Notes under the pieces: model-generated
What the model saw: the letters and a program-made list of their open reading frames with translations, nothing else
Told to the model about the DNA's origin: nothing
Database searches by the model: none
In this document: positions 1-64,000 of the stretch, in pieces
Position numbering within the stretch: the stretch's first letter is position 1
Layout: each line of letters begins with the position of its first letter
Position numbers and translations under genes: made by a program
Assembly (NCBI GenBank): GCA_946699065.1
Contig: CAMPDV010000293.1
Coordinates: forward strand, 248,001 to 312,000
Source of the DNA: Loxodes magnus
Taxonomy: Eukaryota; Ciliophora; Karyorelictea; Loxodida; Loxodidae
DNA length: 64,000 nt
Direction: 5' to 3'

Positions 1-3000
1 GTATTATCTCTACTTCCCGATACGATGAACTCTGAATCACTGGATATAGCCACAGATCATACATAATCTGTGTGACCACTCATGGTCTTACAGGTACCTG
101 TCTTGACGTTCCATAGTCTCACCGTATTATATCTACTTCCCGATACGATGAACTCTGAATCACTTGATATAGCCACAGATCTTACAGAATTTGTGTGACC
201 ACTCATGGTCTTACAGGTACCTGTCTTGACGTTCCATAGTCTCACCGTCTTATATCTACTTCCCGATACGATGAACTCTGAATCACTGGATATAGCCACA
301 TATAATACAGAATTTGTGTGACCACTCATGGTCTTACAGGTACCTGTCTTGACGTTCCATAGTCTCACCGTATTATCTCAACTTCCCGATACGATGAACT
401 CTGAATCACTGGATATAGCCACAGCTTATACATAACTAGTGTGACCACTCATGGTCTTACAGGTACCTGTCTTGACGTTCCATAGTCTCACCGTATTATC
501 TCTACTTCCCGATACGATGAACTCTGAATCACTTGATATAGCCACAGATAATACATAATTTGTGTGACCACTCATGGTCTTACAGGTACCTGTCTTGACG
601 TTCCATAGTCTCACCGTATTATCTCTACTTCCCGATACGATGAACTCTGAATCACTTGATATAGCCACAGATCATACAGAACTAGTGTGACCACTCATGG
701 TCTTACAGGTACCTGTCTTGACGTTCCATAGTCTCACTGTCTAATCATAACTTCCCGATACGATGAACTCTGAATCACTGGATATAGCCACAGATAATAC
801 ATAATCTGTGTGAACACTCATGGTCTTACAGGTACCTGTCTTGACGTTCCATAGTCTCACCGTATTATCTCTACTTCCCGATACGATGAACTCTGAATCA
901 CTGGATATAGCCACAGATAATACGTAATCTGTGTGACCACTCATGGTCTTACAGGTACCTGTCTTGACGTTCCATAGTCTCACCGTATTATATCTACTTC
1001 CCGATACGATGAACTCTGAATCACTGGATATAGCCACAGATCATACATAACTAGTGTGACCACTCATGGTCTTACAGGTACCTGTCTTGACGTTCCATAG
1101 TCTCACTGTCTAATCATAACTTCCCGATACGATGAACTCTGAATCACTGGATATAGCCACAGATAATACATAATCTGTGTGAACACTCATGGTCTTACAG
1201 GTACCTGTCTTGACGTTCCATAGTCTCACCGTATTATCTCTACTTCCCGATACGATGAACTCTGAATCACTGGATATAGCCACAGATAATACGTAATCTG
1301 TGTGACCACTCATGGTCTTACAGGTACCTGTCTTGACGTTCCATAGTCTCACCGTATTATATCTACTTCCCGATACGATGAACTCTGAATCACTTGATAT
1401 AGCCACAGATCATACAGAACTAGTGTGACCACTCATGGTCTTACAGGTACCTGTCTTGACGTCCCATAGTCTCACCGTAGAATCATGACTTCCCGATACG
1501 ATGAACTCTGAATCACTGGATATAGCCACAGATCTTACAGAATTTGTGTGACCACTCATGGTCTTACAGGTACCTGTCTTGACGTTCCATAGTCTCACCT
1601 TCTTATCTCAACTTCCCGATACGATGAACTCTGAATCACTGGATATAGCCACAGCTTATACATAACTAGTGTGACCACTCATGGTCTTACAGGTACCTGT
1701 CTTGACGTCCCATAGTCTCACCGTAGAATCATGACTTCCCGATACGATGAACTCTGAATCACTTGATATAGCCACAGATAATACATAATTTGTGTGACCA
1801 CTCATGGTCTTACAGGTACCTGTCTTGACGTTCCATAGTCTCACCGTATTATCTCTACTTCCCGATACGATGAACTCTGAATCACTGGATATAGCCACAG
1901 ATAATACGTAATCTGTGTGACCACTCATGGTCTTACAGGTACCTGTCTTGACGTTCCATAGTCTCACCGTATTATATCTACTTCCCGATACGATGAACTC
2001 TGAATCACTTGATATAGCCACAGATCTTACATAATCTGTGTGACCACTCATGGTCTTACAGGTACCTGTCTTGACGTTCCATAGTCTCACCGTAGAATCA
2101 TGACTTCCCGATACGATGAACTCTGAATCACTTGATATAGCCACAGATAATACATAATTTGTGTGACCACTCATGGTCTTACAGGTACCTGTCTTGACGT
2201 TCCATAGTCTCACCGTCTTATCTCTACTTCCCGATACGATGAACTCTGAATCACTGGATATAGCCACAGATCATACATAATCTGTGTGACCACTCATGGT
2301 CTTACAGGTACCTGTCTTGACGTTCCATAGTCTCACCGTATTATATCTACTTCCCGATACGATGAACTCTGAATCACTTGATATAGCCACAGATCTTACA
2401 GAATTTGTGTGACCACTCATGGTCTTACAGGTACCTGTCTTGACGTTCCATAGTCTCACCGTCTTATATCTACTTCCCGATACGATGAACTCTGAATCAC
2501 TGGATATAGCCACATATAATACAGAATTTGTGTGACCACTCATGGTCTTACAGGTACCTGTCTTGACGTTCCATAGTCTCACCGTATTATCTCTACTTCC
2601 CGATACGATGAACTCTGAATCACTGGATATTGCCACAGCTTATACATAACTAGTGTGACCACTCATGGTCTTACAGGTACCTGTCTTGACGTTCCATAGT
2701 CTCACCGTCTTATCTCTACTTCCCGATACGATGAACTCTGAATCACTGGATATAGCCACATATAATACAGAATTTGTGTGACCACTCATGGTCTTACAGG
2801 TACCTGTCTTGACGTTCCATAGTCTCACCGTATTATCTCAACTTCCCGATACGATGAACTCTGAATCACTGGATATAGCCACAGCTTATACATAACTAGT
2901 GTGACCACTCATGGTCTTACAGGTACCTGTCTTGACGTTCCATAGTCTCACCGTATTATCTATACTTCCCGATACGATGAACTCTGAATCACTTGATATA

Positions 3001-6000
3001 GCCACAGATAATACATAATTTGTGTGACCACTCATGGTCTTACAGGTACCTGTCTTGACGTTCCATAGTCTCACCGTATTATCTCTACTTCCCGATACGA
3101 TGAACTCTGAATCACTTGATATAGCCACAGATCATACAGAACTAGTGTGACCACTCATGGTCTTACAGGTACCTGTCTTGACGTTCCATAGTCTCACTGT
3201 CTAATCATAACTTCCCGATACGATGAACTCTGAATCACTGGATATAGCCACAGATAATACATAATCTGTGTGAACACTCATGGTCTTACAGGTACCTGTC
3301 TTGACGTTCCATAGTCTCACCGTATTATCTCTACTTCCCGATACGATGAACTCTGAATCACTGGATATAGCCACAGATCTTACAGAATTTGTGTGACCAC
3401 TCATGGTCTTACAGGTACCTGTCTTGACGTTCCATAGTCTCACCGTCTTATCTCAACTTCCCGATACGATGAACTCTGAATCACTGGATATAGCCACAGA
3501 TCATACAGAACTAGTGTGACCACTCATGGTCTTACAGGTACCTGTCTTGACGTTCCATAGTCTCACCGTATTATCTCTACTTCCCGATACGATGAACTCT
3601 GAATCACTTGATATAGCCACAGATCATACAGAATTTGTGTGACCACTCATGGTCTTACAGGTACCTGTCTTGACGTCCCATAGTCTCACCGTAGAATCAT
3701 GACTTCCCGATACGATGAACTCTGAATCACTGGATATAGCCACAGCTTATACATAACTAGTGTGACCACTCATGGTCTTACAGGTACCTGTCTTGACGTC
3801 CCATAGTCTCACCGTATTATCTCAACTTCCCGATACGATGAACTCTGAATCACTGGATATAGCCACAGATCATACATAATCTGTGTGACCACTCATGGTC
3901 TTACAGGTACCTGTCTTGACGTCCCATAGTCTCACCGTAGAATCATGACTTCCCGATACGATGAACTCTGAATCACTTGATATAGCCACAGATAATACGT
4001 AATCTGTGTGACCACTCATGGTCTTACAGGTACCTGTCTTGACGTTCCATAGTCTCACCGTATTATATCTAATTCCCGATACGATGAACTCTGAATCACT
4101 GGATATAGCCACAGATGATACAGAATTTGTGTGACCACTCATGGTCTTACAGGTACCTGTCTTGACGTCCCATAGTCTCACCGTAGAATCATGACTTCCC
4201 GATACGATGAACTCTGAATCACTGGATATAGCCACAGATCTTACAGAATTTGTGTGACCACTCATGGTCTTACAGGTACCTGTCTTGACGTCCCATAGTC
4301 TCACCGTAGAATCATGACTTCCCGATACGATGAACTCTGAATCACTGGATATAGCCACAGATCTTACAGAATTTGTGTGACCACTCATGGTCTTACAGGT
4401 ACCTGTCTTGACGTCCCATAGTCTCACCGTAGAATCATGACTTCCCGATACGATGAACTCTGAATCACTTGATATAGCCACAGATCTTACAGAATTTGTG
4501 TGACCACTCATGGTCTTACAGGTACCTGTCTTGACGTTCCATAGTCTCACCGTATTATCTCTACTTCCCGATACGATGAACTCTGAATCACTGGATATAG
4601 CCACAGATCTTACAGAATTTGTGTGACCACTCATGGTCTTACAGGTACCTGTCTTGACGTCCCATAGTCTCACCGTCTTATCTCAACTTCCCGATACGAT
4701 GAACTCTGAATCACTGGATATAGCCACAGCTTATAAATAACTAGTGTGACCACTCATGGTCTTACAGGTACCTGTCTTGACGTTCCATAGTCTCACCGTC
4801 TCATCATCACTTCCCGATACGATGAACTCTGAATCACTGGATATAGCCACAGATCTTACAGAATTTGTGTGACCACTCATGGTCTTACAGGTACCTGTCT
4901 TGACGTTCCATAGTCTCACCGTATTATCTCTACTTCCCGATACGATGAACTCTGAATCACTGGATATAGCCACAGATAATACGTAATCTGTGTGACCACT
5001 CATGGTCTTACAGGTACCTGTCTTGACGTTCCATAGTCTCACCGTATTATCTCTACTTCCCGATACGATGAACTCTGAATCACTTGATATAGCCACAGAT
5101 CTTACAGAATTTGTGTGACCACTCATGGTCTTACAGGTACCTGTCTTGACGTTCCATAGTCTCACCGTATTATATCTAATTCCCGATACGATGAACTCTG
5201 AATCACTTGATATAGCCACAGATCATACATAACTAGTGTGACCACTCATGGTCTTACAGGTACCTGTCTTGACGTCCCATAGTCTCACCGTAGAATCATG
5301 ACTTCCCGATACGATGAACTCTGAATCACTGGATATAGCCACAGATCTTACAGAATTTGTGTGACCACTCATGGTCTTACAGGTACCTGTCTTGACGTCC
5401 CATAGTCTCACCGTCTCATCTCTACTTCCCGATACGATGAACTCTGAATCACTGGATATAGCCACAGATAATACGTAATCTGTGTGACCACTCATGGTCT
5501 TACAGGTACCTGTCTTGACGTTCCATAGTCTCACCGTATTATCTCTACTTCCCGATACGATGAACTCTGAATCACTGGATATAGCCACAGCTTATACATA
5601 ACTAGTGTGACCACTCATGGTCTTACAGGTACCTGTCTTGACGTCCCATAGTCTCACCGTAGAATCATGACTTCCCGATACGATGAACTCTGAATCACTT
5701 GATATAGCCACAGATCATACAGAATTTGTGTGACCACTCATGGTCTTACAGGTACCTGTCTTGACGTTCCATAGTCTCACTGTCTAATCATAACTTCCCG
5801 ATACGATGAACTCTGAATCACTGGATATAGCCACAGCTTATAAATAACTAGTGTGACCACTCATGGTCTTACAGGTACCTGTCTTGACGTTCCATAGTCT
5901 CACCGTCTCATCTCTACTTCCCGATACGATGAACTCTGAATCACTTGATATAGCCACAGATAATACATAATTTGTGTGACCACTCATGGTCTTACAGGTA

Positions 6001-9000: not shown

Positions 9001-9292
9001 ACGATGAACTCTGAATCACTGGATATAGCCACAGATCATACATAACTAGTGTGACCACTCATGGTCTTACAGGTACCTGTCTTGACGTCCCATAGTCTCA
9101 CCGTATTATCTCTACTTCCCGATACGATGAACTCTGAATCACTGGATATAGCCACAGATCTTACAGAATTTGTGTGACCACTCATGGTCTTACAGGTACC
9201 TGTCTTGACGTTCCATAGTCTCACCGTCTCATCTCTACTTCCCGATACGATGAACTCTGAATCACTGGATATAGCCACAGATAATACATAAC
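1..9292 (-). CDS. Giant WD40-repeat protein, segment 6 (downstream-most, partial)
   Basis: About 75.5 units follow the deletion at 9292 and run off the low-coordinate edge, so the C terminus is not visible. This segment has features rare elsewhere: RY at p5-p6 ([16 protein letters not shown]), SGIRYNTV blades with Ile replacing Ser, and three units with SVHT, where the conserved Gly of the GH dipeptide is Val (813-815, 1182-1184 and 3273-3275). TAG at p7 (YD-TAG-TVRLW) occurs near 740, 1109 and 3200 and reads as YDQTVRLW if TAG is Gln. One unit near 1599 has DKKVRLW for DKTVRLW. The lower 4 kb contains 3-, 18- and 20-unit duplications. Confidence 0.6.
205..3377. repeat. 20-unit-offset duplication (205-917 and 2665-3377)
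   Basis: About 713 bp at 205-917 recur at 2665-3377, offset 2,460 bp (20 units). I saw two base differences, one near 2961 changing SGSRDN to SGSIDN and one near 2713. A second block, about 2-380, recurs 18 units higher (about 2216-2594), so the two duplications interleave and two units were gained between them. Confidence 0.85.
690..1393. repeat. Tandem 3-unit (369-bp) duplication
   Basis: About 335 bp at 690-1024 are repeated at 1059-1393. Each copy contains the YD-TAG-TV blade, the SVHT blade and an RYN blade in the same order. A partial third copy starts near 3150. Close spacing and identity suggest a very recent unequal exchange. Confidence 0.85.
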
Positions 9293-9297
9293 AGTGT
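9288..9297 (-). other. 1-base deletion, frameshift site 1
   Basis: The unit reads ataacagtgtg where its neighbours read ataactagtgtg, so one base is lost from the ACTAGT motif and the unit is 122 bp. The minus-strand frame changes from GHT-SYV to GHT-VMY. This copy differs from the other four in its neighbouring p3 codon (TTA-TCT here, TAA-GCT there), so it either arose independently or was moved by conversion. Confidence 0.9.
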
Positions 9298-12200
9298 GAC
9301 CACTCATGGTCTTACAGGTACCTGTCTTGACGTCCCATAGTCTCACCGTCTCATCATCACTTCCCGATACGATGAACTCTGAATCACTTGATATAGCCAC
9401 AGATAATACATAATTTGTGTGACCACTCATGGTCTTACAGGTACCTGTCTTGACGTTCCATAGTCTCACCGTATTATCTCTACTTCCCGATACGATGAAC
9501 TCTGAATCACTGGATATAGCCACAGATAATACATAATCTGTGTGACCACTCATGGTCTTACAGGTACCTGTCTTGACGTCCCATAGTCTCACCGTCTCAT
9601 CTTTACTTCCCGATACGATGAACTCTGAATCACTGGATATAGCCACAGATCTTACAGAATTTGTGTGACCACTCATGGTCTTACAGGTACCTGTCTTGAC
9701 GTTCCATAGTCTCACCGTCTCATCTCTACTTCCCGATACGATGAACTCTGAATCACTGGATATAGCCACAGCTTATACATAACTAGTGTGACCACTCATG
9801 GTCTTACAGGTACCTGTCTTGACGTTCCATAGTCTCACCGTCTCATCATCACTTCCCGATACGATGAACTCTGAATCACTGGATATAGCCACAGATCTTA
9901 CAGAATTTGTGTGACCACTCATGGTCTTACAGGTACCTGTCTTGACGTTCCATAGTCTCACCGTCTTATCTCAACTTCCCGATACGATGAACTCTGAATC
10001 ACTGGATATAGCCACAGATCTTACAGAATTTGTGTGACCACTCATGGTCTTACAGGTACCTGTCTTGACGTTCCATAGTCTCACCGTCTTATCTCAACTT
10101 CCCGATACGATGAACTCTGAATCACTGGATATAGCCACAGATCTTACAGAATTTGTGTGACCACTCATGGTCTTACAGGTACCTGTCTTGACGTTCCATA
10201 GTCTCACCGTCTCATCTCTACTTCCCGATACGATGAACTCTGAATCACTGGATATAGCCACAGCTTATACATAACTAGTGTGACCACTCATGGTCTTACA
10301 GGTACCTGTCTTGACGTTCCATAGTCTCACCGTCTCATCATCACTTCCCGATACGATGAACTCTGAATCACTGGATATAGCCACAGATCTTACAGAATTT
10401 GTGTGACCACTCATGGTCTTACAGGTACCTGTCTTGACGTTCCATAGTCTCACCGTCTTATCTCAACTTCCCGATACGATGAACTCTGAATCACTGGATA
10501 TAGCCACAGATCTTACAGAATTTGTGTGACCACTCATGGTCTTACAGGTACCTGTCTTGACGTTCCATAGTCTCACCGTCTTATCTCAACTTCCCGATAC
10601 GATGAACTCTGAATCACTGGATATAGCCACAGATCATACATAACTAGTGTGACCACTCATGGTCTTACAGGTACCTGTCTTGACGTCCCATAGTCTCACC
10701 GTCTTATCTCAACTTCCCGATACGATGAACTCTGAATCACTTGATATAGCCACAGATCTTACAGAATTTGTGTGACCACTCATGGTCTTACAGGTACCTG
10801 TCTTGACGTTCCATAGTCTCACTGTCTAATCATAACTTCCCGATACGATGAACTCTGAATCACTGGATATAGCCACAGCTTATACATAACTAGTGTGACC
10901 ACTCATGGTCTTACAGGTACCTGTCTTGACGTCCCATAGTCTCACCGTATTATCTCTACTTCCCGATACGATGAACTCTGAATCACTGGATATAGCCACA
11001 GATGATACATAATCTGTGTGACCACTCATGGTCTTACAGGTACCTGTCTTGACGTCCCATAGTCTCACCGTAGAATCATGACTTCCCGATACGATGAACT
11101 CTGAATCACTTGATATAGCCACAGATCTTACAGAATTTGTGTGACCACTCATGGTCTTACAGGTACCTGTCTTGACGTCCCATAGTCTCACCGTAGAATC
11201 ATGACTTCCCGATACGATGAACTCTGAATCACTGGATATAGCCACAGATAATACATAATCTGTGTGACCACTCATGGTCTTACAGGTACCTGTCTTGACG
11301 TCCCATAGTCTCACCGTCTTATCTCAACTTCCCGATACGATGAACTCTGAATCACTGGATATAGCCACAGCAAATACAGAATTTGTGTGACCACTCATGG
11401 TCTTACAGGTACCTGTCTTGACGTTCCATAGTCTCACCGTATTATCTCAACTTCCCGATACGATGAACTCTGAATCACTGGATATAGCCACAGATGATAC
11501 ATAATCTGTGTGACCACTCATGGTCTTACAGGTACCTGTCTTGACGTTCCATAGTCTCACCGTCTCATCATCACTTCCCGATACGATGAACTCTGAATCA
11601 CTGGATATAGCCACAGATCATACAGAACTAGTGTGACCACTCATGGTCTTACAGGTACCTGTCTTGACGTCCCATAGTCTCACCGTCTCATCTCTACTTC
11701 CCGATACGATGAACTCTGAATCACTGGATATAGCCACAGATCATACAGAATTTGTGTGACCACTCATGGTCTTACAGGTACCTGTCTTGACGTTCCATAG
11801 TCTCACCGTATTATCTCAACTTCCCGATACGATGAACTCTGAATCACTGGATATAGCCACAGATAATACATAATCTGTGTGACCACTCATGGTCTTACAG
11901 GTACCTGTCTTGACGTTCCATAGTCTCACCGTCTCATCTCTACTTCCCGATACGATGAACTCTGAATCACTGGATATAGCCACAGATAATACGTAATCTG
12001 TGTGACCACTCATGGTCTTACAGGTACCTGTCTTGACGTCCCATAGTCTCACCGTATTATCTCAACTTCCCGATACGATGAACTCTGAATCACTGGATAT
12101 AGCCACAGATAATACATAATCTGTGTGACCACTCATGGTCTTACAGGTACCTGTCTTGACGTTCCATAGTCTCACCGTCTCATCTCTACTTCCCGATACG

Positions 12201-15200
12201 ATGAACTCTGAATCACTGGATATAGCCACAGATCTTACAGAATTTGTGTGACCACTCATGGTCTTACAGGTACCTGTCTTGACGTTCCATAGTCTCACCG
12301 TCTCATCATCACTTCCCGATACGATGAACTCTGAATCACTGGATATAGCCACAGATCTTACAGAATTTGTGTGACCACTCATGGTCTTAAAGGTACCTGT
12401 CTTGACGTCCCATAGTCTCACCGTATTATCTCTACTTCCCGATACGATGAACTCTGAATCACTGGATATAGCCACAGATCTTACAGAATTTGTGTGACCA
12501 CTCATGGTCTTACAGGTACCTGTCTTGACGTTCCATAGTCTCACCGTCTTATCTCAACTTCCCGATACGATGAACTCTGAATCACTGGATATAGCCACAG
12601 ATCATACATAACTAGTGTGACCACTCATGGTCTTACAGGTACCTGTCTTGACGTCCCATAGTCTCACCGTATTATCTCTACTTCCCGATACGATGAACTC
12701 TGAATCACTGGATATAGCCACAGATCTTACAGAATTTGTGTGACCACTCATGGTCTTACAGGTACCTGTCTTGACGTTCCATAGTCTCACCGTATTATCT
12801 CTACTTCCCGATACGATGAACTCTGAATCACTGGATATAGCCACAGATCTTACAGAATTTGTGTGACCACTCATGGTCTTACAGGTACCTGTCTTGACGT
12901 CCCATAGTCTCACCGTAGAATCATGACTTCCCGATACGATGAACTCTGAATCACTTGATATAGCCACAGATCTTACAGAATTTGTGTGACCACTCATGGT
13001 CTTACAGGTACCTGTCTTGACGTCCCATAGTCTCACCGTAGAATCATGACTTCCCGATACGATGAACTCTGAATCACTGGATATAGCCACAGATCTTACA
13101 GAATTTGTGTGACCACTCATGGTCTTACAGGTACCTGTCTTGACGTCCCATAGTCTCACCGTCTTATCTCAACTTCCCGATACGATGAACTCTGAATCAC
13201 TGGATATAGCCACAGATCATACAGAACTAGTGTGACCACTCATGGTCTTACAGGTACCTGTCTTGACGTTCCATAGTCTCACCGTATTATCTCTACTTCC
13301 CGATACGATGAACTCTGAATCACTTGATATAGCCACAGATCTTACAGAATTTGTGTGACCACTCATGGTCTTACAGGTACCTGTCTTGACGTCCCATAGT
13401 CTCACCGTAGAATCATGACTTCCCGATACGATGAACTCTGAATCACTGGATATAGCCACAGCTTATACATAACTAGTGTGACCACTCATGGTCTTACAGG
13501 TACCTGTCTTGACGTCCCATAGTCTCACCGTCTCATCATCACTTCCCGATACGATGAACTCTGAATCACTTGATATAGCCACAGATAATACATAATTTGT
13601 GTGACCACTCATGGTCTTACAGGTACCTGTCTTGACGTTCCATAGTCTCACCGTATTATCTCTACTTCCCGATACGATGAACTCTGAATCACTGGATATA
13701 GCCACAGATAATACGTAATCTGTGTGACCACTCATGGTCTTACAGGTACCTGTCTTGACGTCCCATAGTCTCACCGTATTATCTCAACTTCCCGATACGA
13801 TGAACTCTGAATCACTGGATATAGCCACAGATAATACATAATCTGTGTGACCACTCATGGTCTTACAGGTACCTGTCTTGACGTTCCATAGTCTCACCGT
13901 CTCATCTCTACTTCCCGATACGATGAACTCTGAATCACTGGATATAGCCACAGATCTTACAGAATTTGTGTGACCACTCATGGTCTTACAGGTACCTGTC
14001 TTGACGTTCCATAGTCTCACCGTCTCATCATCACTTCCCGATACGATGAACTCTGAATCACTGGATATAGCCACAGATCTTACAGAATTTGTGTGACCAC
14101 TCATGGTCTTAAAGGTACCTGTCTTGACGTCCCATAGTCTCACCGTCTTATCTCAACTTCCCGATACGATGAACTCTGAATCACTGGATATAGCCACAGA
14201 TCTTACAGAATTTGTGTGACCACTCATGGTCTTACAGGTACCTGTCTTGACGTTCCATAGTCTCACCGTCTTATCTCAACTTCCCGATACGATGAACTCT
14301 GAATCACTGGATATAGCCACAGATCATACATAACTAGTGTGACCACTCATGGTCTTACAGGTACCTGTCTTGACGTCCCATAGTCTCACCGTAGAATCAT
14401 GACTTCCCGATACGATGAACTCTGAATCACTTGATATAGCCACAGATCATACATAATTTGTGTGACCACTCATGGTCTTACAGGTACCTGTCTTGACGTT
14501 CCATAGTCTCACCGTCTTATCTCAACTTCCCGATACGATGAACTCTGAATCACTGGATATAGCCACAGATGATACAGAATTTGTGTGACCACTCATGGTC
14601 TTACAGGTACCTGTCTTGACGTTCCATAGTCTCACCGTCTCATCATCACTTCCCGATACGATGAACTCTGAATCACTGGATATAGCCACAGATAATACAT
14701 AACTAGTGTGACCACTCATGGTCTTACAGGTACCTGTCTTGACGTCCCATAGTCTCACCGTATTATCTCTACTTCCCGATACGATGAACTCTGAATCACT
14801 GGATATAGCCACAGATCTTACAGAATTTGTGTGACCACTCATGGTCTTACAGGTACCTGTCTTGACGTTCCATAGTCTCACCGTCTTATCTCAACTTCCC
14901 GATACGATGAACTCTGAATCACTGGATATAGCCACAGATCATACAGAACTAGTGTGACCACTCATGGTCTTACAGGTACCTGTCTTGACGTTCCATAGTC
15001 TCACCGTATTATCTCTACTTCCCGATACGATGAACTCTGAATCACTTGATATAGCCACAGATCTTACAGAATTTGTGTGACCACTCATGGTCTTACAGGT
15101 ACCTGTCTTGACGTCCCATAGTCTCACCGTCTTATCTCAACTTCCCGATACGATGAACTCTGAATCACTGGATATAGCCACAGATCATACAGAACTAGTG

Positions 15201-18200
15201 TGACCACTCATGGTCTTACAGGTACCTGTCTTGACGTTCCATAGTCTCACCGTATTATCTCTACTTCCCGATACGATGAACTCTGAATCACTTGATATAG
15301 CCACAGATCTTACAGAATTTGTGTGACCACTCATGGTCTTACAGGTACCTGTCTTGACGTCCCATAGTCTCACCGTAGAATCATGACTTCCCGATACGAT
15401 GAACTCTGAATCACTGGATATAGCCACAGCTTATACATAACTAGTGTGACCACTCATGGTCTTACAGGTACCTGTCTTGACGTCCCATAGTCTCACCGTC
15501 TCATCATCACTTCCCGATACGATGAACTCTGAATCACTTGATATAGCCACAGATAATACATAATTTGTGTGACCACTCATGGTCTTACAGGTACCTGTCT
15601 TGACGTTCCATAGTCTCACCGTATTATCTCTACTTCCCGATACGATGAACTCTGAATCACTGGATATAGCCACAGATAATACGTAATCTGTGTGACCACT
15701 CATGGTCTTACAGGTACCTGTCTTGACGTCCCATAGTCTCACCGTATTATCTCAACTTCCCGATACGATGAACTCTGAATCACTGGATATAGCCACAGAT
15801 AATACATAATCTGTGTGACCACTCATGGTCTTACAGGTACCTGTCTTGACGTTCCATAGTCTCACCGTCTCATCTCTACTTCCCGATACGATGAACTCTG
15901 AATCACTGGATATAGCCACAGATCTTACAGAATTTGTGTGACCACTCATGGTCTTACAGGTACCTGTCTTGACGTTCCATAGTCTCACCGTCTCATCATC
16001 ACTTCCCGATACGATGAACTCTGAATCACTGGATATAGCCACAGATCTTACAGAATTTGTGTGACCACTCATGGTCTTAAAGGTACCTGTCTTGACGTCC
16101 CATAGTCTCACCGTCTTATCTCAACTTCCCGATACGATGAACTCTGAATCACTGGATATAGCCACAGATCTTACAGAATTTGTGTGACCACTCATGGTCT
16201 TACAGGTACCTGTCTTGACGTTCCATAGTCTCACCGTCTTATCTCAACTTCCCGATACGATGAACTCTGAATCACTGGATATAGCCACAGATCATACATA
16301 ACTAGTGTGACCACTCATGGTCTTACAGGTACCTGTCTTGACGTCCCATAGTCTCACCGTAGAATCATGACTTCCCGATACGATGAACTCTGAATCACTT
16401 GATATAGCCACAGATCATACATAATTTGTGTGACCACTCATGGTCTTACAGGTACCTGTCTTGACGTTCCATAGTCTCACCGTCTTATCTCAACTTCCCG
16501 ATACGATGAACTCTGAATCACTGGATATAGCCACAGATGATACAGAATTTGTGTGACCACTCATGGTCTTACAGGTACCTGTCTTGACGTTCCATAGTCT
16601 CACCGTCTCATCATCACTTCCCGATACGATGAACTCTGAATCACTGGATATAGCCACAGATAATACATAACTAGTGTGACCACTCATGGTCTTACAGGTA
16701 CCTGTCTTGACGTCCCATAGTCTCACCGTATTATCTCTACTTCCCGATACGATGAACTCTGAATCACTGGATATAGCCACAGATCTTACAGAATTTGTGT
16801 GACCACTCATGGTCTTACAGGTACCTGTCTTGACGTTCCATAGTCTCACCGTCTTATCTCAACTTCCCGATACGATGAACTCTGAATCACTGGATATAGC
16901 CACAGATAATACATAATCTGTGTGACCACTCATGGTCTTACAGGTACCTGTCTTGACGTCCCATAGTCTCACCGTCTTATCTCAACTTCCCGATACGATG
17001 AACTCTGAATCACTGGATATAGCCACAGCAAATACAGAATTTGTGTGACCACTCATGGTCTTACAGGTACCTGTCTTGACGTTCCATAGTCTCACCGTAT
17101 TATCTCAACTTCCCGATACGATGAACTCTGAATCACTGGATATAGCCACAGATGATACATAATCTGTGTGACCACTCATGGTCTTACAGGTACCTGTCTT
17201 GACGTTCCATAGTCTCACCGTCTCATCATCACTTCCCGATACGATGAACTCTGAATCACTGGATATAGCCACAGATCATACAGAACTAGTGTGACCACTC
17301 ATGGTCTTACAGGTACCTGTCTTGACGTTCCATAGTCTCACCGTCTCATCTCAACTTCCCGATACGATGAACTCTGAATCACTGGATATAGCCACAGATC
17401 TTACAGAATTTGTGTGACCACTCATGGTCTTACAGGTACCTGTCTTGACGTTCCATAGTCTCACCGTATTATCTCAACTTCCCGATACGATGAACTCTGA
17501 ATCACTGGATATAGCCACAGATAATACATAACTAGTGTGACCACTCATGGTCTTACAGGTACCTGTCTTGACGTTCCATAGTCTCACCGTATTATCTCTA
17601 CTTCCCGATACGATGAACTCTGAATCACTGGATATAGCCACAGATCTTACAGAATTTGTGTGACCACTCATGGTCTTACAGGTACCTGTCTTGACGTTCC
17701 ATAGTCTCACCGTCTTATCTCAACTTCCCGATACGATGAACTCTGAATCACTGGATATAGCCACAGATAATACAGAACTAGTGTGACCACTCATGGTCTT
17801 ACAGGTACCTGTCTTGACGTTCCATAGTCTCACCGTCTCATCATCACTTCCCGATACGATGAACTCTGAATCACTGGATATAGCCACAGATCTTACAGAA
17901 TTTGTGTGACCACTCATGGTCTTACAGGTACCTGTCTTGACGTTCCATAGTCTCACCGTCTTATCTCAACTTCCCGATACGATGAACTCTGAATCACTGG
18001 ATATAGCCACAGATCTTACAGAATTTGTGTGACCACTCATGGTCTTACAGGTACCTGTCTTGACGTTCCATAGTCTCACCGTATTATCTCTACTTCCCGA
18101 TACGATGAACTCTGAATCACTGGATATAGCCACAGCTTATACATAACTAGTGTGACCACTCATGGTCTTACAGGTACCTGTCTTGACGTCCCATAGTCTC

Positions 18201-21200
18201 ACCGTAGAATCATGACTTCCCGATACGATGAACTCTGAATCACTTGATATAGCCACAGATAATACATAATTTGTGTGACCACTCATGGTCTTACAGGTAC
18301 CTGTCTTGACGTTCCATAGTCTCACCGTATTATCTCTACTTCCCGATACGATGAACTCTGAATCACTGGATATAGCCACAGATAATACGTAATCTGTGTG
18401 ACCACTCATGGTCTTACAGGTACCTGTCTTGACGTTCCATAGTCTCACCGTCTCATCATCACTTCCCGATACGATGAACTCTGAATCACTGGATATAGCC
18501 ACAGATAATACATAACTAGTGTGACCACTCATGGTCTTACAGGTACCTGTCTTGACGTCCCATAGTCTCACCGTATTATCTCAACTTCCCGATACGATGA
18601 ACTCTGAATCACTGGATATAGCCACAGATAATACATAATCTGTGTGACCACTCATGGTCTTACAGGTACCTGTCTTGACGTTCCATAGTCTCACCGTCTC
18701 ATCTCTACTTCCCGATACGATGAACTCTGAATCACTGGATATAGCCACAGATCTTACAGAATTTGTGTGACCACTCATGGTCTTACAGGTACCTGTCTTG
18801 ACGTCCCATAGTCTCACCGTCTTATCTCAACTTCCCGATACGATGAACTCTGAATCACTGGATATAGCCACAGATCATACATAACTAGTGTGACCACTCA
18901 TGGTCTTACAGGTACCTGTCTTGACGTCCCATAGTCTCACCGTAGAATCATGACTTCCCGATACGATGAACTCTGAATCACTTGATATAGCCACAGATCA
19001 TACATAATTTGTGTGACCACTCATGGTCTTACAGGTACCTGTCTTGACGTTCCATAGTCTCACCGTCTTATCTCAACTTCCCGATACGATGAACTCTGAA
19101 TCACTGGATATAGCCACAGATGATACAGAATTTGTGTGACCACTCATGGTCTTACAGGTACCTGTCTTGACGTTCCATAGTCTCACCGTCTCATCATCAC
19201 TTCCCGATACGATGAACTCTGAATCACTGGATATAGCCACAGATAATACATAACTAGTGTGACCACTCATGGTCTTACAGGTACCTGTCTTGACGTCCCA
19301 TAGTCTCACCGTATTATCTCTACTTCCCGATACGATGAACTCTGAATCACTGGATATAGCCACAGATCTTACAGAATTTGTGTGACCACTCATGGTCTTA
19401 CAGGTACCTGTCTTGACGTTCCATAGTCTCACCGTATTATCTCAACTTCCCGATACGATGAACTCTGAATCACTGGATATAGCCACAGATGATACATAAT
19501 CTGTGTGACCACTCATGGTCTTACAGGTACCTGTCTTGACGTCCCATAGTCTCACCGTCTTATCTCAACTTCCCGATACGATGAACTCTGAATCACTGGA
19601 TATAGCCACAGCAAATACATAATTTGTGTGACCACTCATGGTCTTACAGGTACCTGTCTTGACGTTCCATAGTCTCACCGTATTATCTCAACTTCCCGAT
19701 ACGATGAACTCTGAATCACTGGATATAGCCACAGATGATACATAATCTGTGTGACCACTCATGGTCTTACAGGTACCTGTCTTGACGTCCCATAGTCTCA
19801 CCGTCTCATCATCACTTCCCGATACGATGAACTCTGAATCACTGGATATAGCCACAGATCATACAGAACTAGTGTGACCACTCATGGTCTTACAGGTACC
19901 TGTCTTGACGTTCCATAGTCTCACCGTATTATCTCTACTTCCCGATACGATGAACTCTGAATCACTGGATATAGCCACAGATCTTACAGAATTTGTGTGA
20001 CCACTCATGGTCTTACAGGTACCTGTCTTGACGTTCCATAGTCTCACCGTATTATCTCAACTTCCCGATACGATGAACTCTGAATCACTGGATATAGCCA
20101 CAGATAATACATAACTAGTGTGACCACTCATGGTCTTACAGGTACCTGTCTTGACGTTCCATAGTCTCACCGTATAATCATAACTTCCCGATACGATGAA
20201 CTCTGAATCACTGGATATAGCCACAGATAATACATAACTAGTGTGACCACTCATGGTCTTACAGGTACCTGTCTTGACGTTCCATAGTCTCACCGTCTTA
20301 TCTCAACTTCCCGATACGATGAACTCTGAATCACTGGATATAGCCACAGATAATACAGAACTAGTGTGACCACTCATGGTCTTACAGGTACCTGTCTTGA
20401 CGTTCCATAGTCTCACCGTCTCATCATCACTTCCCGATACGATGAACTCTGAATCACTGGATATAGCCACAGATCTTACAGAATTTGTGTGACCACTCAT
20501 GGTCTTACAGGTACCTGTCTTGACGTTCCATAGTCTCACCGTCTTATCTCAACTTCCCGATACGATGAACTCTGAATCACTGGATATAGCCACAGATCTT
20601 ACAGAATTTGTGTGACCACTCATGGTCTTACAGGTACCTGTCTTGACGTTCCATAGTCTCACCGTATTATCTCTACTTCCCGATACGATGAACTCTGAAT
20701 CACTGGATATAGCCACAGATCTTACAGAATTTGTGTGACCACTCATGGTCTTACAGGTACCTGTCTTGACGTTCCATAGTCTCACCGTATTATCTCAACT
20801 TCCCGATACGATGAACTCTGAATCACTTGATATAGCCACAGATCTTACAGAATTTGTGTGACCACTCATGGTCTTACAGGTACCTGTCTTGACGTCCCAT
20901 AGTCTCACCGTAGAATCATGACTTCCCGATACGATGAACTCTGAATCACTGGATATAGCCACAGCTTATACATAACTAGTGTGACCACTCATGGTCTTAC
21001 AGGTACCTGTCTTGACGTCCCATAGTCTCACTGTCTTATCTCAACTTCCCGATACGATGAACTCTGAATCACTTGATATAGCCACAGATCATACAGAACT
21101 AGTGTGACCACTCATGGTCTTACAGGTACCTGTCTTGACGTCCCATAGTCTCACCGTAGAATCATGACTTCCCGATACGATGAACTCTGAATCACTTGAT

Positions 21201-41640: not shown

Positions 41641-51108
<9,468 letters not shown>

Positions 51109-54100
51109 AGTGTGACCACTCATGGTCTTACAGGTACCTGTCTTGACGTCCCATAGTCTCACCGTAGAATCATGACTTCCCGATACGATGAACTCTGAAT
51201 CACTTGATATAGCCACAGATAATACATAATTTGTGTGACCACTCATGGTCTTACAGGTACCTGTCTTGACGTTCCATAGTCTCACCGTATTATCTCTACT
51301 TCCCGATACGATGAACTCTGAATCACTGGATATAGCCACAGATCATACATAACTAGTGTGACCACTCATGGTCTTACAGGTACCTGTCTTGACGTTCCAT
51401 AGTCTCACCGTATTATCTCTACTTCCCGATACGATGAACTCTGAATCACTGGATATAGCCACAGATGATACAGAATTTGTGTGACCACTCATGGTCTTAC
51501 AGGTACCTGTCTTGACGTTCCATAGTCTCACCGTCTCATCTCTACTTCCCGATACGATGAACTCTGAATCACTGGATATAGCCACAGATCTTACAGAATT
51601 TGTGTGACCACTCATGGTCTTACAGGTACCTGTCTTGACGTTCCATAGTCTCACCGTCTCATCTCTACTTCCCGATACGATGAACTCTGAATCACTGGAT
51701 ATAGCCACAGATAATACATAATCTGTGTGACCACTCATGGTCTTACAGGTACCTGTCTTGACGTTCCATAGTCTCACCGTCTCATCATCACTTCCCGATA
51801 CGATGAACTCTGAATCACTGGATATAGCCACAGCTTATACATAACTAGTGTGACCACTCATGGTCTTACAGGTACCTGTCTTGACGTCCCATAGTCTCAC
51901 CGTCTTATCTCAACTTCCCGATACGATGAACTCTGAATCACTGGATATAGCCACAGATCTTACAGAATTTGTGTGACCACTCATGGTCTTACAGGTACCT
52001 GTCTTGACGTTCCATAGTCTCACCGTCTTATCTCAACTTCCCGATACGATGAACTCTGAATCACTGGATATAGCCACAGATCTTACAGAATTTGTGTGAC
52101 CACTCATGGTCTTACAGGTACCTGTCTTGACGTTCCATAGTCTCACCGTATAATCATAACTTCCCGATACGATGAACTCTGAATCACTGGATATAGCCAC
52201 AGATCATACATAATCTGTGTGACCACTCATGGTCTTACAGGTACCTGTCTTGACGTCCCATAGTCTCACCGTCTTATCTCAACTTCCCGATACGATGAAC
52301 TCTGAATCACTGGATATAGCCACAGATGATACAGAATTTGTGTGACCACTCATGGTCTTACAGGTACCTGTCTTGACGTTCCATAGTCTCACCGTATTAT
52401 CTCAACTTCCCGATACGATGAACTCTGAATCACTGGATATAGCCACAGATAATACATAACTAGTGTGACCACTCATGGTCTTACAGGTACCTGTCTTGAC
52501 GTTCCATAGTCTCACCGTATTATCTCTACTTCCCGATACGATGAACTCTGAATCACTGGATATAGCCACAGATCTTACAGAATTTGTGTGACCACTCATG
52601 GTCTTACAGGTACCTGTCTTGACGTTCCATAGTCTCACCGTCTTATCTCAACTTCCCGATACGATGAACTCTGAATCACTGGATATAGCCACAGATAATA
52701 CAGAACTAGTGTGACCACTCATGGTCTTACAGGTACCTGTCTTGACGTTCCATAGTCTCACCGTCTCATCATCACTTCCCGATACGATGAACTCTGAATC
52801 ACTGGATATAGCCACAGATCTTACAGAATTTGTGTGACCACTCATGGTCTTACAGGTACCTGTCTTGACGTTCCATAGTCTCACCGTCTTATCTCAACTT
52901 CCCGATACGATGAACTCTGAATCACTGGATATAGCCACAGATCTTACAGAATTTGTGTGACCACTCATGGTCTTACAGGTACCTGTCTTGACGTCCCATA
53001 GTCTCACCGTATTATCTCTACTTCCCGATACGATGAACTCTGAATCACTGGATATAGCCACAGCTTATACATAACTAGTGTGACCACTCATGGTCTTACA
53101 GGTACCTGTCTTGACGTCCCATAGTCTCACCGTAGAATCATGACTTCCCGATACGATGAACTCTGAATCACTTGATATAGCCACAGATAATACATAATTT
53201 GTGTGACCACTCATGGTCTTACAGGTACCTGTCTTGACGTTCCATAGTCTCACCGTATTATCTCTACTTCCCGATACGATGAACTCTGAATCACTGGATA
53301 TAGCCACAGATCTTACAGAATTTGTGTGACCACTCATGGTCTTACAGGTACCTGTCTTGACGTTCCATAGTCTCACCGTCTTATCTCAACTTCCCGATAC
53401 GATGAACTCTGAATCACTGGATATAGCCACAGATCTTACAGAATTTGTGTGACCACTCATGGTCTTACAGGTACCTGTCTTGACGTTCCATAGTCTCACC
53501 GTATAATCATAACTTCCCGATACGATGAACTCTGAATCACTGGATATAGCCACAGATCATACATAATCTGTGTGACCACTCATGGTCTTACAGGTACCTG
53601 TCTTGACGTCCCATAGTCTCACCGTCTTATCTCAACTTCCCGATACGATGAACTCTGAATCACTGGATATAGCCACAGATCTTACATAATTTGTGTGACC
53701 ACTCATGGTCTTACAGGTACCTGTCTTGACGTTCCATAGTCTCACCGTATTATCTCTACTTCCCGATACGATGAACTCTGAATCACTGGATATAGCCACA
53801 GATCTTACAGAATTTGTGTGACCACTCATGGTCTTACAGGTACCTGTCTTGACGTTCCATAGTCTCACCGTCTCATCATCACTTCCCGATACGATGAACT
53901 CTGAATCACTGGATATAGCCACAGATAATACATAACTAGTGTGACCACTCATGGTCTTACAGGTACCTGTCTTGACGTCCCATAGTCTCACCGTAGAATC
54001 ATGACTTCCCGATACGATGAACTCTGAATCACTGGATATAGCCACAGCTTATACATAACTAGTGTGACCACTCATGGTCTTACAGGTACCTGTCTTGACG

Positions 54101-63100: not shown

Positions 63101-64000
63101 TCTCAACTTCCCGATACGATGAACTCTGAATCACTGGATATAGCCACAGATTATACAGAATCAGTGTGACCACTCATGGTCTTACAGGTACCTGTCTTGA
63201 CGTTCCATAGTCTCACCGTCTCATCATCACTTCCCGATACGATGAACTCTGAATCACTGGATATAGCCACAGCTTATACATAACTAGTGTGACCACTCAT
63301 GGTCTTACAGGTACCTGTCTTGACGTCCCATAGTCTCACCGTAGAATCATGACTTCCCGATACGATGAACTCTGAATCACTTGATATAGCCACAGATCAT
63401 ACATAATCTGTGTGACCACTCATGGTCTTACAGGTACCTGTCTTGACGTTCCATAGTCTCACCGTATTATCTCTACTTCCCGATACGATGAACTCTGAAT
63501 CACTGGATATAGCCACAGATAATACGTAATCTGTGTGACCACTCATGGTCTTACAGGTACCTGTCTTGACGTTCCATAGTCTCACCGTCTCATCATCACT
63601 TCCCGATACGATGAACTCTGAATCACTTGATATAGCCACAGATAATACATAATTTGTGTGACCACTCATGGTCTTACAGGTACCTGTCTTGACGTTCCAT
63701 AGTCTCACCGTCTCATCATCACTTCCCGATACGATGAACTCTGAATCACTGGATATAGCCACAGCTTATACATAACTAGTGTGACCACTCATGGTCTTAC
63801 AGGTACCTGTCTTGACGTCCCATAGTCTCACCGTAGAATCATGACTTCCCGATACGATGAACTCTGAATCACTTGATATAGCCACAGATCATACATAATC
63901 TGTGTGACCACTCATGGTCTTACAGGTACCTGTCTTGACGTTCCATAGTCTCACCGTATTATCTCTACTTCCCGATACGATGAACTCTGAATCACTGGAT
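51109..64000 (-). CDS. Giant WD40-repeat protein, segment 1 (upstream-most, partial)
   Basis: About 105 WD40 blades (roughly 4,297 codons) lie in one register with no length change. Translation enters from beyond 64000, so the start codon is not visible. The frame is open only if TAA, TAG and TGA are sense; under the standard code it falls into fragments of about 60-160 residues. Blades of type [10 protein letters not shown] and [10 protein letters not shown] dominate, and TAA at p3 (YV-TAA-AVAIS) recurs every few units. Two units carry TAG in place of the TGG for the conserved blade Trp (59884-59886 and 62467-62469), exactly 21 units apart. WD40 propellers are binding scaffolds; no catalytic domain, signal peptide or membrane segment is visible. 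The segment ends at a 1-base deletion near 51108. Whether it is translated or is a decayed array is not shown by sequence alone. Confidence 0.6.
52331..53309. repeat. Near-identical copy of a block 35 kb away (17403-18381)
   Basis: About 980 bp here match 17403-18381 in blade order and, where I compared, almost base for base. The offset of 34,928 bp equals 284 units minus the four single-base deletions between them. I noticed one difference, a ttccat/tcccat exchange at p8 near 18064/52992. The blocks between the copies do not match, so this is a dispersed exchange. Confidence 0.8.
55402..62500. repeat. Nested 12-, 13- and 21-unit duplications
   Basis: A two-blade landmark (RDN/NYV/HDS followed 369 bp higher by HDS/NSV/HDS) occurs at 55402, 57001 and 58477, spaced 13 and 12 units, with a variant at 61429. 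Separately, 59461-59890 recurs at 62044-62473 (21 units), including the rare TAG at the blade Trp. At 53632 and 60397 another blade series recurs 55 units apart, with NYV exchanged for NSV in one position. Confidence 0.8.

What the first reader, a model, noticed from the sequence alone, without database searches (positions are those of the whole stretch)
1..64000. All three stop triplets appear to be sense codons
Seen: TAA, TAG and TGA interrupt the WD40 frame well over a hundred times, yet almost only at p3 (TAA, TGA), p5 (TGA) and p7 (TAG). Units such as the one near 23124 hold TGA and TAG three codons apart (SGS-TGA-D-TAG-TV). Read as Trp and Gln these give SGSWDQTVRLW and YVWSVAIS, standard WD40 choices. 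CAA/CAG never occur in frame. Known: Condylostoma and karyorelict ciliates, and Amoebophrya, use all three as sense. Inference: the source has such a code. TAA/TAG as Glu (as in Blastocrithidia) and TGA as Cys also fit these positions and are not excluded.
Basis: partly seen in the sequence, partly recalled or inferred. Interest (0 to 1): 0.92.

Follow-up and report, generated by a model that had tools for sequence, protein, structure and literature searches.

The report
Ciliate WD40 satellite without stop codons
The window is part of a very long DNA satellite made of one propeller-blade gene segment from a ciliate that reads all three usual stop codons as amino acids, a code already known for this group; the surprise is that the same blade also sits inside genes whose likely binding-face codons vary in the same places.

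Summary
In detail: the window is one minus-strand array of 518 complete WD40 units with 355 in-frame stop triplets in its 513 full-length units, 352 of them at codons 5, 7, 23, 25. The inferred code is right but known. The 705.73-Mb assembly matches the published Loxodes magnus macronuclear one (706 Mbp); its eRF1 is 95% identical to Loxodes striatus. In eRF1 and dynein genes TAA and TAG read as Gln and TGA as Trp (56 of 56 control codons right): NCBI table 27; Glu and Cys are excluded. The array is not one gene: it changes frame, rare variants look neutral, and a 27-bp core of the unit occurs 374,649 times (about 46 Mb). It is a WD40-derived satellite. The unit also forms inner blades of pentapeptide-repeat/WD40 genes: in two of three pieces read, TGA and TAG stand at the same codons; outer parts are under purifying selection (dN/dS 0.25-0.28), variable codons look diversifying (1.9-16.5). 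The four codons match positively selected ones of fungal HET-type WD40 receptors. Satellite plus gene family is the new part; exchange between them is inferred.

The parts
1..64000 (-). Tandem array of WD40 units (41 codons each) filling the whole window; sampled points show it running on in both directions on contig C293, from about 66.5 kb to the contig end at 386.6 kb (about 320 kb, roughly 2,600 units if unbroken between the samples)
   Evidence: (17 of 17 probes from 67 to 376 kb positive, 3 of 3 from 55 to 63 kb negative)
23078..23200 (-). Example unit with TGA at codon 23 and TAG at codon 25 ([41 protein letters not shown] under table 27)
22709..23569 (-). Seven successive in-frame units; under table 27 the best of five models is a seven-bladed beta-propeller (mean pLDDT 94.7, pTM 0.91; the other four models 94.2, 92.6, 91.1 and 50.4)
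50996..51117 (-). 122-bp unit, one base deleted: frameshift
47676..47797 (-). 122-bp unit, same sequence as the one at 50996: frameshift copied with a larger block
44356..44477 (-). 122-bp unit, same sequence as the one at 50996
41528..41649 (-). 122-bp unit, same sequence as the one at 50996
9180..9301 (-). 122-bp unit of a different sequence: frameshift
9302..41527 (-). Longest stretch of the window without a frame change (262 units); that it is open means little, since table 27 has no dedicated stop
3870..4673 (-). Longest stretch listed as open under the standard code (267 aa); used as query for homologues

Best explanation
The window is a stretch of a WD40-derived satellite in the macronuclear genome of Loxodes (almost surely L. 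magnus). Shown: this organism reads TAA and TAG as Gln and TGA as Trp inside genes, so the 'stops' are ordinary Gln and Trp codons. Shown: the unit is one WD40 blade; a 27-bp core of it occurs 374,649 times in the assembly; and the same blade, nearly or fully identical in its fixed codons, forms inner blades of pentapeptide-repeat/WD40 genes, in two of the three pieces read with TGA and TAG in frame at the same codons. Shown by matching spacing, not mapped on a model: the four main variable codons (5, 7, 23, 25) are those known from fungal receptors to lie on the propeller's binding face. Inferred: the blade arose in this gene family, whose binding face is under diversifying selection and whose inner blades are kept alike by exchange; unequal crossing-over or a similar process then amplified it into arrays of hundreds of kilobases. 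The arrays now drift without protein-level constraint and keep the old binding-face variation, Trp and Gln codons included, as a fossil or a reservoir.
For: Code: TAA, TAG = Gln; TGA = Trp; 56 of 56 controls; the Gln of the GGQ motif of eRF1 is TAA in both copies; each of 31 HSP90 matches carries at least one stop triplet; 45 of 46 dynein matches do. Organism: eRF1 95% identical to Loxodes striatus, the other 119 listed hits at most 59%; 705.73 Mb against 706 Mbp. Satellite: 374,649 exact copies of a 27-bp core, 0 for the reversed pattern; frameshifts; rare variants outside the variable codons 12 synonymous: 27 not, 25% synonymous expected; the array's 3' edge stops in mid-unit without the genes' outer blades. 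Gene link. Binding face: (codons 5, 7, 23, 25 all in the top 5 of 41 by residue entropy; equivalents in the top 6 of 42 in an independent 126-bp family).
Against: No transcript, ribosome or peptide data were available, so translation of any array unit is neither shown nor excluded. The direction gene to satellite is inferred; only 5 of 12 block A and 3 of 9 block B haplotypes of the three gene pieces were found in the 1,103 pooled array units. Only four small clusters were read: three are open gene pieces, one (L080) is a broken remnant, and no gene was fetched from end to end. One of the three pieces (L078) has no stop triplet at the variable codons. In the 126-bp family TGA is also common at a codon that is not one of the four and absent at two that are. 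Copy numbers rest on an assembly whose tandem repeats its authors call prone to misassembly (PMC11441545, passages). Species identity is by assembly size and a congener's eRF1, not by a species marker. Suppressor tRNAs were not found or tested (9 of 63 matches fetched, only tRNA-Lys).
Confidence: 0.87

Rival explanations
1. The array is a giant translated gene, or a row of very large genes, encoding thousands of WD40 blades under table 27.
For: Stretches of at least 262 units keep one frame; seven units match the WD40 profile seven times and are predicted as a propeller.
Against: One-base deletions and insertions change the frame, and no in-frame length change was seen among the 123-bp-family units counted; rare variants are not depleted in amino-acid changes; the structural Trp of codon 30 is lost in some units; the 3' edge lacks the outer blades that the three gene pieces carry; 374,649 core copies genome-wide. 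Under a code without dedicated stops, openness is no evidence.
Confidence: 0.06
2. The genome uses the standard code (or keeps one of the three as a strict stop) and the array is a pseudogene or satellite with real stops.
For: The array has frameshifts and its rare variants look neutral.
Against: eRF1, HSP90 and dynein of the same assembly carry the triplets in frame, in eRF1 and dynein at conserved Gln and Trp columns.
Confidence: 0.01
3. All three are sense but with other meanings: TAA/TAG as Glu (as in Blastocrithidia) or TGA as Cys.
For: The test on the array alone cannot tell.
Against: In conserved genes Gln beats Glu by a log score of about 151 for TAA and 53 for TAG, and Trp beats Cys by about 44 for TGA (columns treated as independent, which paralogues are not).
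Confidence: 0.01
4. The units are real but the giant arrays and the copy number are largely an assembly product (collapsed or inflated tandem repeats).
For: The authors attribute the size difference between their two assemblies to misassembly of low-complexity repeats (PMC11441545, passages); the window shows near-copies of whole blocks, e.g. the same 122-bp unit four times.
Against: Within the window there are 188 distinct full-length units in shuffled order, and the core occurs in both orientations; the first 100 of the 374,649 places, the only ones listed, already lie on five other contigs (C2 to C6).
Confidence: 0.15

Closest known systems
Karyorelict nuclear code, NCBI table 27 (UAA/UAG = Gln; UGA = Trp or stop by context), Loxodes included
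   Same: TAA and TAG read as Gln and TGA as Trp in eRF1 and dynein of this assembly; the same triplets stand in frame in the WD40 gene pieces.
   Different: Nothing found to differ; the context-dependent stop role of TGA was not tested here.
HET-D/HET-E (NWD) WD40 receptor family of Podospora anserina
   Same: Near-identical WD40 units under concerted evolution; the four variable codons, two pairs each around a conserved codon with the same spacing, correspond to codons 7, 9, 25, 27 under positive selection (PMC1805685, passages; our 5, 7, 23, 25).
   Different: Ciliate, not fungus; a pentapeptide-repeat stretch precedes the WD40 part (Pfam match for L078); a NACHT or HET domain was not seen in the pieces but the genes were not fetched in full; the blade is also a satellite with 374,649 copies of its core.
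Satellite DNA
   Same: Tandem, very many copies, block duplications, no sign of protein-level constraint on rare variants.
   Different: The unit is a whole coding blade, and its common variants cluster at codons matching the binding face.
Symmetric WD40 propellers and other near-identical-blade WD40 proteins, e.g. PDB 7bie and 2ymu
   Same: Predicted seven-bladed propeller of near-identical blades; TM-score 0.94 to 7bie_A and, by query length, to 2ymu_A.
   Different: Found as DNA arrays of very many units, not as one seven-bladed gene; 46% sequence identity.

Membership tests
NCBI table 27 (karyorelict code) | UAA and UAG decoded as Gln | tested here: met
   79 TAA and 38 TAG columns, Gln best; 56 of 56 sense codons right
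NCBI table 27 (karyorelict code) | UGA decoded as Trp inside coding sequence | tested here: met
   10 TGA columns, 7 at Trp-conserved columns; the other three are not Trp-conserved
NCBI table 27 (karyorelict code) | UGA also the stop near the mRNA 3' end | not tested
   needs transcripts with poly-A; stated in PMC11441545 section 9
NCBI table 27 (karyorelict code) | organism is a karyorelict ciliate | tested here: met
   eRF1 95% identical to Loxodes striatus over the full query; one search places Loxodes in Karyorelictea
WD40 repeat (PF00400) | profile match over the curated cut-off | tested here: met
   272.8 bits against a cut-off of 27, 7 stretches in 7 units
Podospora-type NWD recognition family | four WD40 codons hypervariable, in pairs around a conserved codon | tested here: met
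   codons 5, 7, 23, 25 in the top 5 of 41 by entropy; equivalents in the top 6 of 42 in the 126-bp family; dN/dS above 1 at the variable codons (a wider set of 7 codons) between three gene pieces
Podospora-type NWD recognition family | homogenised inner units (concerted evolution) | tested here: met
   dS 0.08-0.18 at fixed codons of the inner blades against 0.45-0.51 in the outer parts; three gene pieces only
Podospora-type NWD recognition family | NACHT domain, with HET or other effector domain N-terminal | not tested
   only about 300 codons per gene were fetched; a pentapeptide stretch lies directly before the WD40 part
Satellite DNA | high copy number in tandem arrays | tested here: met
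   374,649 exact copies of the core; about 320 kb on one contig, by probes
Satellite DNA | not under coding constraint | tested here: inconclusive
   (12 synonymous: 27 not, 25% expected) and the frameshifts speak for it; no expression data

The most novel reading that the evidence does not exclude
The satellite is a donor archive: blade variants that arise and are shuffled in the giant arrays are copied by gene conversion into the inner blades of the pentapeptide/WD40 genes, many of which lie near contig ends and read towards them, so a ciliate renews a binding-face repertoire from tens of megabases of WD40 DNA, much as antigen archives feed expressed genes elsewhere; the code without dedicated stops lets TGA and TAR count as usable Trp and Gln variants instead of killing the gene.
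Probability: 0.18. Interest if true: 0.88.

Novelty: new variant of a known kind. Interest (0 to 1): 0.62.

Why it matters
The code itself is known, and it is a good result that it can be recovered from ordinary genes of the same assembly. What looks new is the object: a coding WD40 blade amplified to hundreds of thousands of copies (about 6.5% of the assembly by the core count), sharing its sequence with genes of an apparently large family whose variable codons match those of fungal non-self recognition receptors. If exchange between satellite and genes is real, it is a route to receptor diversity in a single-celled organism and a case where satellite DNA carries usable coding variation. It also shows why, under a code without dedicated stops, an open frame says nothing about whether DNA is a gene.

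Tried and rejected
Fungal repeat-induced mutation (C to T at CpA) as the source of stops was set aside by eye because many CpA sites are intact in the constant part of the units; not computed. Diversity-generating retroelements were set aside because each variable codon shows only a few codon types. Decoding the code from the array alone failed: 2 of 5 controls right, with Tyr best for TAA and Lys best (Gln second) for TAG; a first version of that script used a faulty pattern that matched 3 repeats. SSU rRNA gave no usable answer and was not repeated. Rfam on the window: 0 matches. Phage collection: 2 records with distant WD40 matches. tRNA search: 63 matches, 9 fetched, all tRNA-Lys(TTT), so suppressor tRNAs stay untested; in Condylostoma a Trp tRNA with UCA anticodon was not found either (PMC4967479, passages). 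The copy number of the 126-bp family was asked once and not answered. Paper searches around WD40 satellites, WD40 in ciliates or Loxodes, and pentapeptide repeats with WD40 in ciliates listed nothing on this array or family (only listings and abstract starts seen); 'WD40' does not occur in the held main text of the L. magnus genome paper, whose supplements were not read. Neither means it is nowhere in print.
Full report
What is in the window. The window is G000:C293:248001-312000 of an unnamed assembly of 705,730,643 bases in 7,843 contigs. Its minus strand is one tandem array: 518 complete units, 513 of 123 bp (188 distinct sequences) and 5 of 122 bp. A unit reads, with its commonest bases under table 27, [41 protein letters not shown]; seven units match PF00400 seven times with 272.8 bits against a cut-off of 27. 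The 513 units hold 355 in-frame stop triplets; 352 are at codons 5, 7, 23 and 25, 3 at codons 30 and 37. CAA and CAG are absent in frame, and TGG occurs in frame only at codon 30. In 104 kb around the window (C293:228-332 kb; 840 units of 123 bp, 5 of 122 bp) the picture is the same: 560 stop triplets, 555 of them at codons 5, 7, 23 and 25.

What genome it is. The eRF1 gene of this assembly (read) is 95% identical over its full length to eRF1 of Loxodes striatus; the other 119 of the 120 hits listed (of 1,353) are at most 59%. The published L. magnus macronuclear assembly has 706 Mbp, of which 231 Mbp are low-complexity tandem repeats (PMC11441545, passages). I take the source to be that assembly; this rests on size and on the congener's eRF1, not on a species marker.

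The code. The same paper states that karyorelicts including Loxodes use table 27, in which UGA is the only stop and can also encode Trp far from the poly-A tail (section 9 read). I tested the sense meanings here. In-frame TAA and TAG lie inside all 3 eRF1-family matches; each of 31 HSP90 matches carries at least one stop triplet, TAG and TAA in the near-full-length ones; so do 45 of 46 dynein C-terminal matches. Aligning two eRF1 copies with 119 homologues and 7 dynein domains (7 of the 46 matches, picked because they carry TGA) with 120 homologues, with stop triplets masked as X, gave TAA=Gln (79 columns), TAG=Gln (38) and TGA=Trp (10), each with posterior near 1, and 56 of 56 sense codons right. 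Of the 10 TGA columns, 7 are Trp in at least 101 of 120 homologues, 2 are variable and 1 is mostly Ile or Thr. Of the columns in which one residue exceeds half, TAA falls on Gln in 24 of 49 (Lys 10, Glu 6) and TAG in 9 of 20 (Glu 5, Lys 3). The columns come from paralogues and are not independent, so the posterior is overstated, but the ranking is clear. The Gln of the catalytic GGQ motif of eRF1 is TAA in both copies. Against human eRF1 alone, TAA falls on Gln in 7 of 13 and 8 of 15 columns and TAG in 2 of 7 and 1 of 6, in the two copies.

What the array alone can and cannot say. The same kind of test on WD40 units alone, against 197 repeats from 92 of 120 homologous proteins, favoured Trp for TGA (0.44), Tyr for TAA and Lys for TAG (Gln second), and decoded only 2 of 5 control codons correctly.

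The array is a satellite. It is found on contig C293 from about 66.5 kb to the contig end at 386.6 kb: besides the stretches read in full, 17 of 17 probes from 67 to 376 kb match and 3 of 3 probes from 55 to 63 kb do not, and the edge is read. Its frame changes: 5 one-base deletions in the window (2 different sequences, one in four copies), two 124-bp units in L013 and a 121-bp spacing in L014. Variants seen at most 10 times outside the variable codons are 12 synonymous and 27 not, where 25% synonymous is expected for random changes. The 27-bp core GATTCAGAGTTCATCGTATCGGGAAGT has 374,649 exact copies in the assembly (165,005 forward, 209,644 reverse; 0 for the reversed pattern); at 123 bp each that is about 46 Mb or 6.5%. 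That figure includes genes, leaves out diverged units, and inherits any error of a repeat-rich assembly.

The gene family. Four of the small clusters among the first 100 places listed were read. Three (L078 on C3, L079 on C2, L081 on C5) are open, in-frame gene pieces over the roughly 300 codons fetched: a pentapeptide-repeat stretch (PF00805, 46 bits against a cut-off of 20.2 for L078, the only one scanned apart), a diverged first blade, inner blades made of the satellite unit, and diverged last blades. The fourth (L080) is a broken remnant. Stop triplets stand in frame at the same variable codons in two of the three: TGA at codon 7 twice and TAG at codon 25 in L079, TGA at codon 5 and TAG at codon 25 in L081; L078 has none there. 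All three carry others elsewhere, and the Trp of the WD motif of blade 6 is TGA in 3 of 3. Between the three, the outer parts (161 codons) have dN/dS 0.25, 0.26, 0.28 with dS 0.45-0.51; fixed codons of the inner blades (112) have dS 0.08-0.18 and dN/dS 0.15-0.29; the variable codons (25, set chosen from the window, not from the genes) have dN/dS 1.9, 2.3 and 16.5, the last with dS near zero. The nine inner blades differ from the satellite consensus in 0-5 of 30 fixed codons (three of them in 0), against 16-22 for the first blades and 18-19 for the fifth; blade 6 was compared one codon out of register and is not counted. Five of 12 block A and 3 of 9 block B haplotypes of the genes occur among 1,103 array units. 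The pentapeptide part of L078 has 150 scored matches in the genome, its own place included (the cap; 2,071 candidates; identity 67-97%). That these are all followed by WD40 blades was not checked, but a large family is likely.

The binding face. In Podospora NWD genes, WD40 codons 7, 9, 25 and 27, two pairs each around a conserved codon and on the top face of the propeller, are under positive selection (PMC1805685, passages; PMC2873952, passages). By spacing and by the conserved codons between them these equal our 5, 7, 23 and 25; I did not map them on the model. They rank 5, 1, 3 and 2 of 41 by residue entropy in the window (chance 5e-5 for four given codons all in the top 5), and their equivalents rank within the top 6 of 42 in an independent 126-bp WD40 array family of this genome, 685 units (1.3e-4). 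In that family TGA stands at the equivalents of codons 5 (95 times) and 7 (38), but also 70 times at its codon 22, which is not one of the four, and no stop triplet stands at the equivalents of 23 and 25. Seven window units read with table 27 are predicted as a seven-bladed propeller from the single sequence (best of five models, mean pLDDT 94.7; the others 94.2, 92.6, 91.1, 50.4); the best solved match is 7bie_A, TM-score 0.94.

Place in the genome. Of the 150 matches, the 54 on contigs C1 to C400 were looked at: 43 lie within about 100 kb of a contig end (29% expected) and 41 of these 43 read outward; many contig lengths were interpolated from contig rank. A 60-bp satellite that repeats through C293:1-10000 has its core at 9 of 20 contig ends sampled, always in the same outward sense (9 of 9). 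The 20 ends were not a random sample. The window's array also reads towards the C293 end that carries this satellite. This may mean subtelomeres, or only that contigs break in satellites beside these genes; no telomere repeat was recognised by eye in the printed part of the 20 ends.

Conclusion. The finding's observation is confirmed and its code inference supported, but the code is known. The new part is a WD40-blade satellite that shares its unit with genes under diversifying selection at the likely binding face. That the satellite feeds the genes is possible and untested.

Noticed in passing
L016 (C293:1-10000) and contig ends L082-L101: A second tandem satellite of about 60 bp, AT- and CT-rich, repeats through the first 10 kb of C293 (118 cores, all on one strand) and its core is found at 9 of 20 sampled contig ends in one fixed outward orientation.
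   Followed up: partly
150 places listed, e.g. C12:28751, C16:15866, C26:10432, C18:1603668: Matches to the pentapeptide part of the WD40 gene family crowd near contig ends and read outward: of the 54 matches on contigs C1-C400, 43 lie within about 100 kb of an end and 41 of those 43 read outward (many contig lengths interpolated).
   Followed up: partly
L017-L027 (C119, C6957, C1503, C9, C620): An independent 126-bp WD40 array family ([41 protein letters not shown]) with its own in-frame TGA codons at the equivalents of codons 5 and 7 and, unexpectedly, 70 times at its codon 22, elsewhere Phe or Cys; codon 14 is CAG 680 times and TAG 3 times in 685 units; some lengths change in frame (129, 123, 135) and some not (106, 119, 125, 127).
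   Followed up: partly
G000:C140:595230-626002: Tandem cluster of HSP90 matches about 2.25 kb apart, several with the same score and some split or shortened.
   Followed up: no
G000:C103, C78, C158 and others: tRNA matches are swamped by one class, partly in tandem with spacings of 527 and about 1,752 bp; 9 of 63 scored matches were fetched, all tRNA-Lys(TTT).
   Followed up: partly
L031, L032 (C196): Two eRF1 copies about 35 kb apart on one contig, both with TAA for the Gln of the GGQ motif.
   Followed up: partly
L068 (C293:63251-67000): Directly behind the array's 3' edge the GC content drops to about 18-29% and, further on, a reverse-transcriptase-like reading frame appears (judged by eye, no search).
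   Followed up: no
window 41528-51117: Higher-order duplication: the same 122-bp unit recurs at spacings of 3,320, 3,320 and 2,828 bp within longer repeated blocks.
   Followed up: partly
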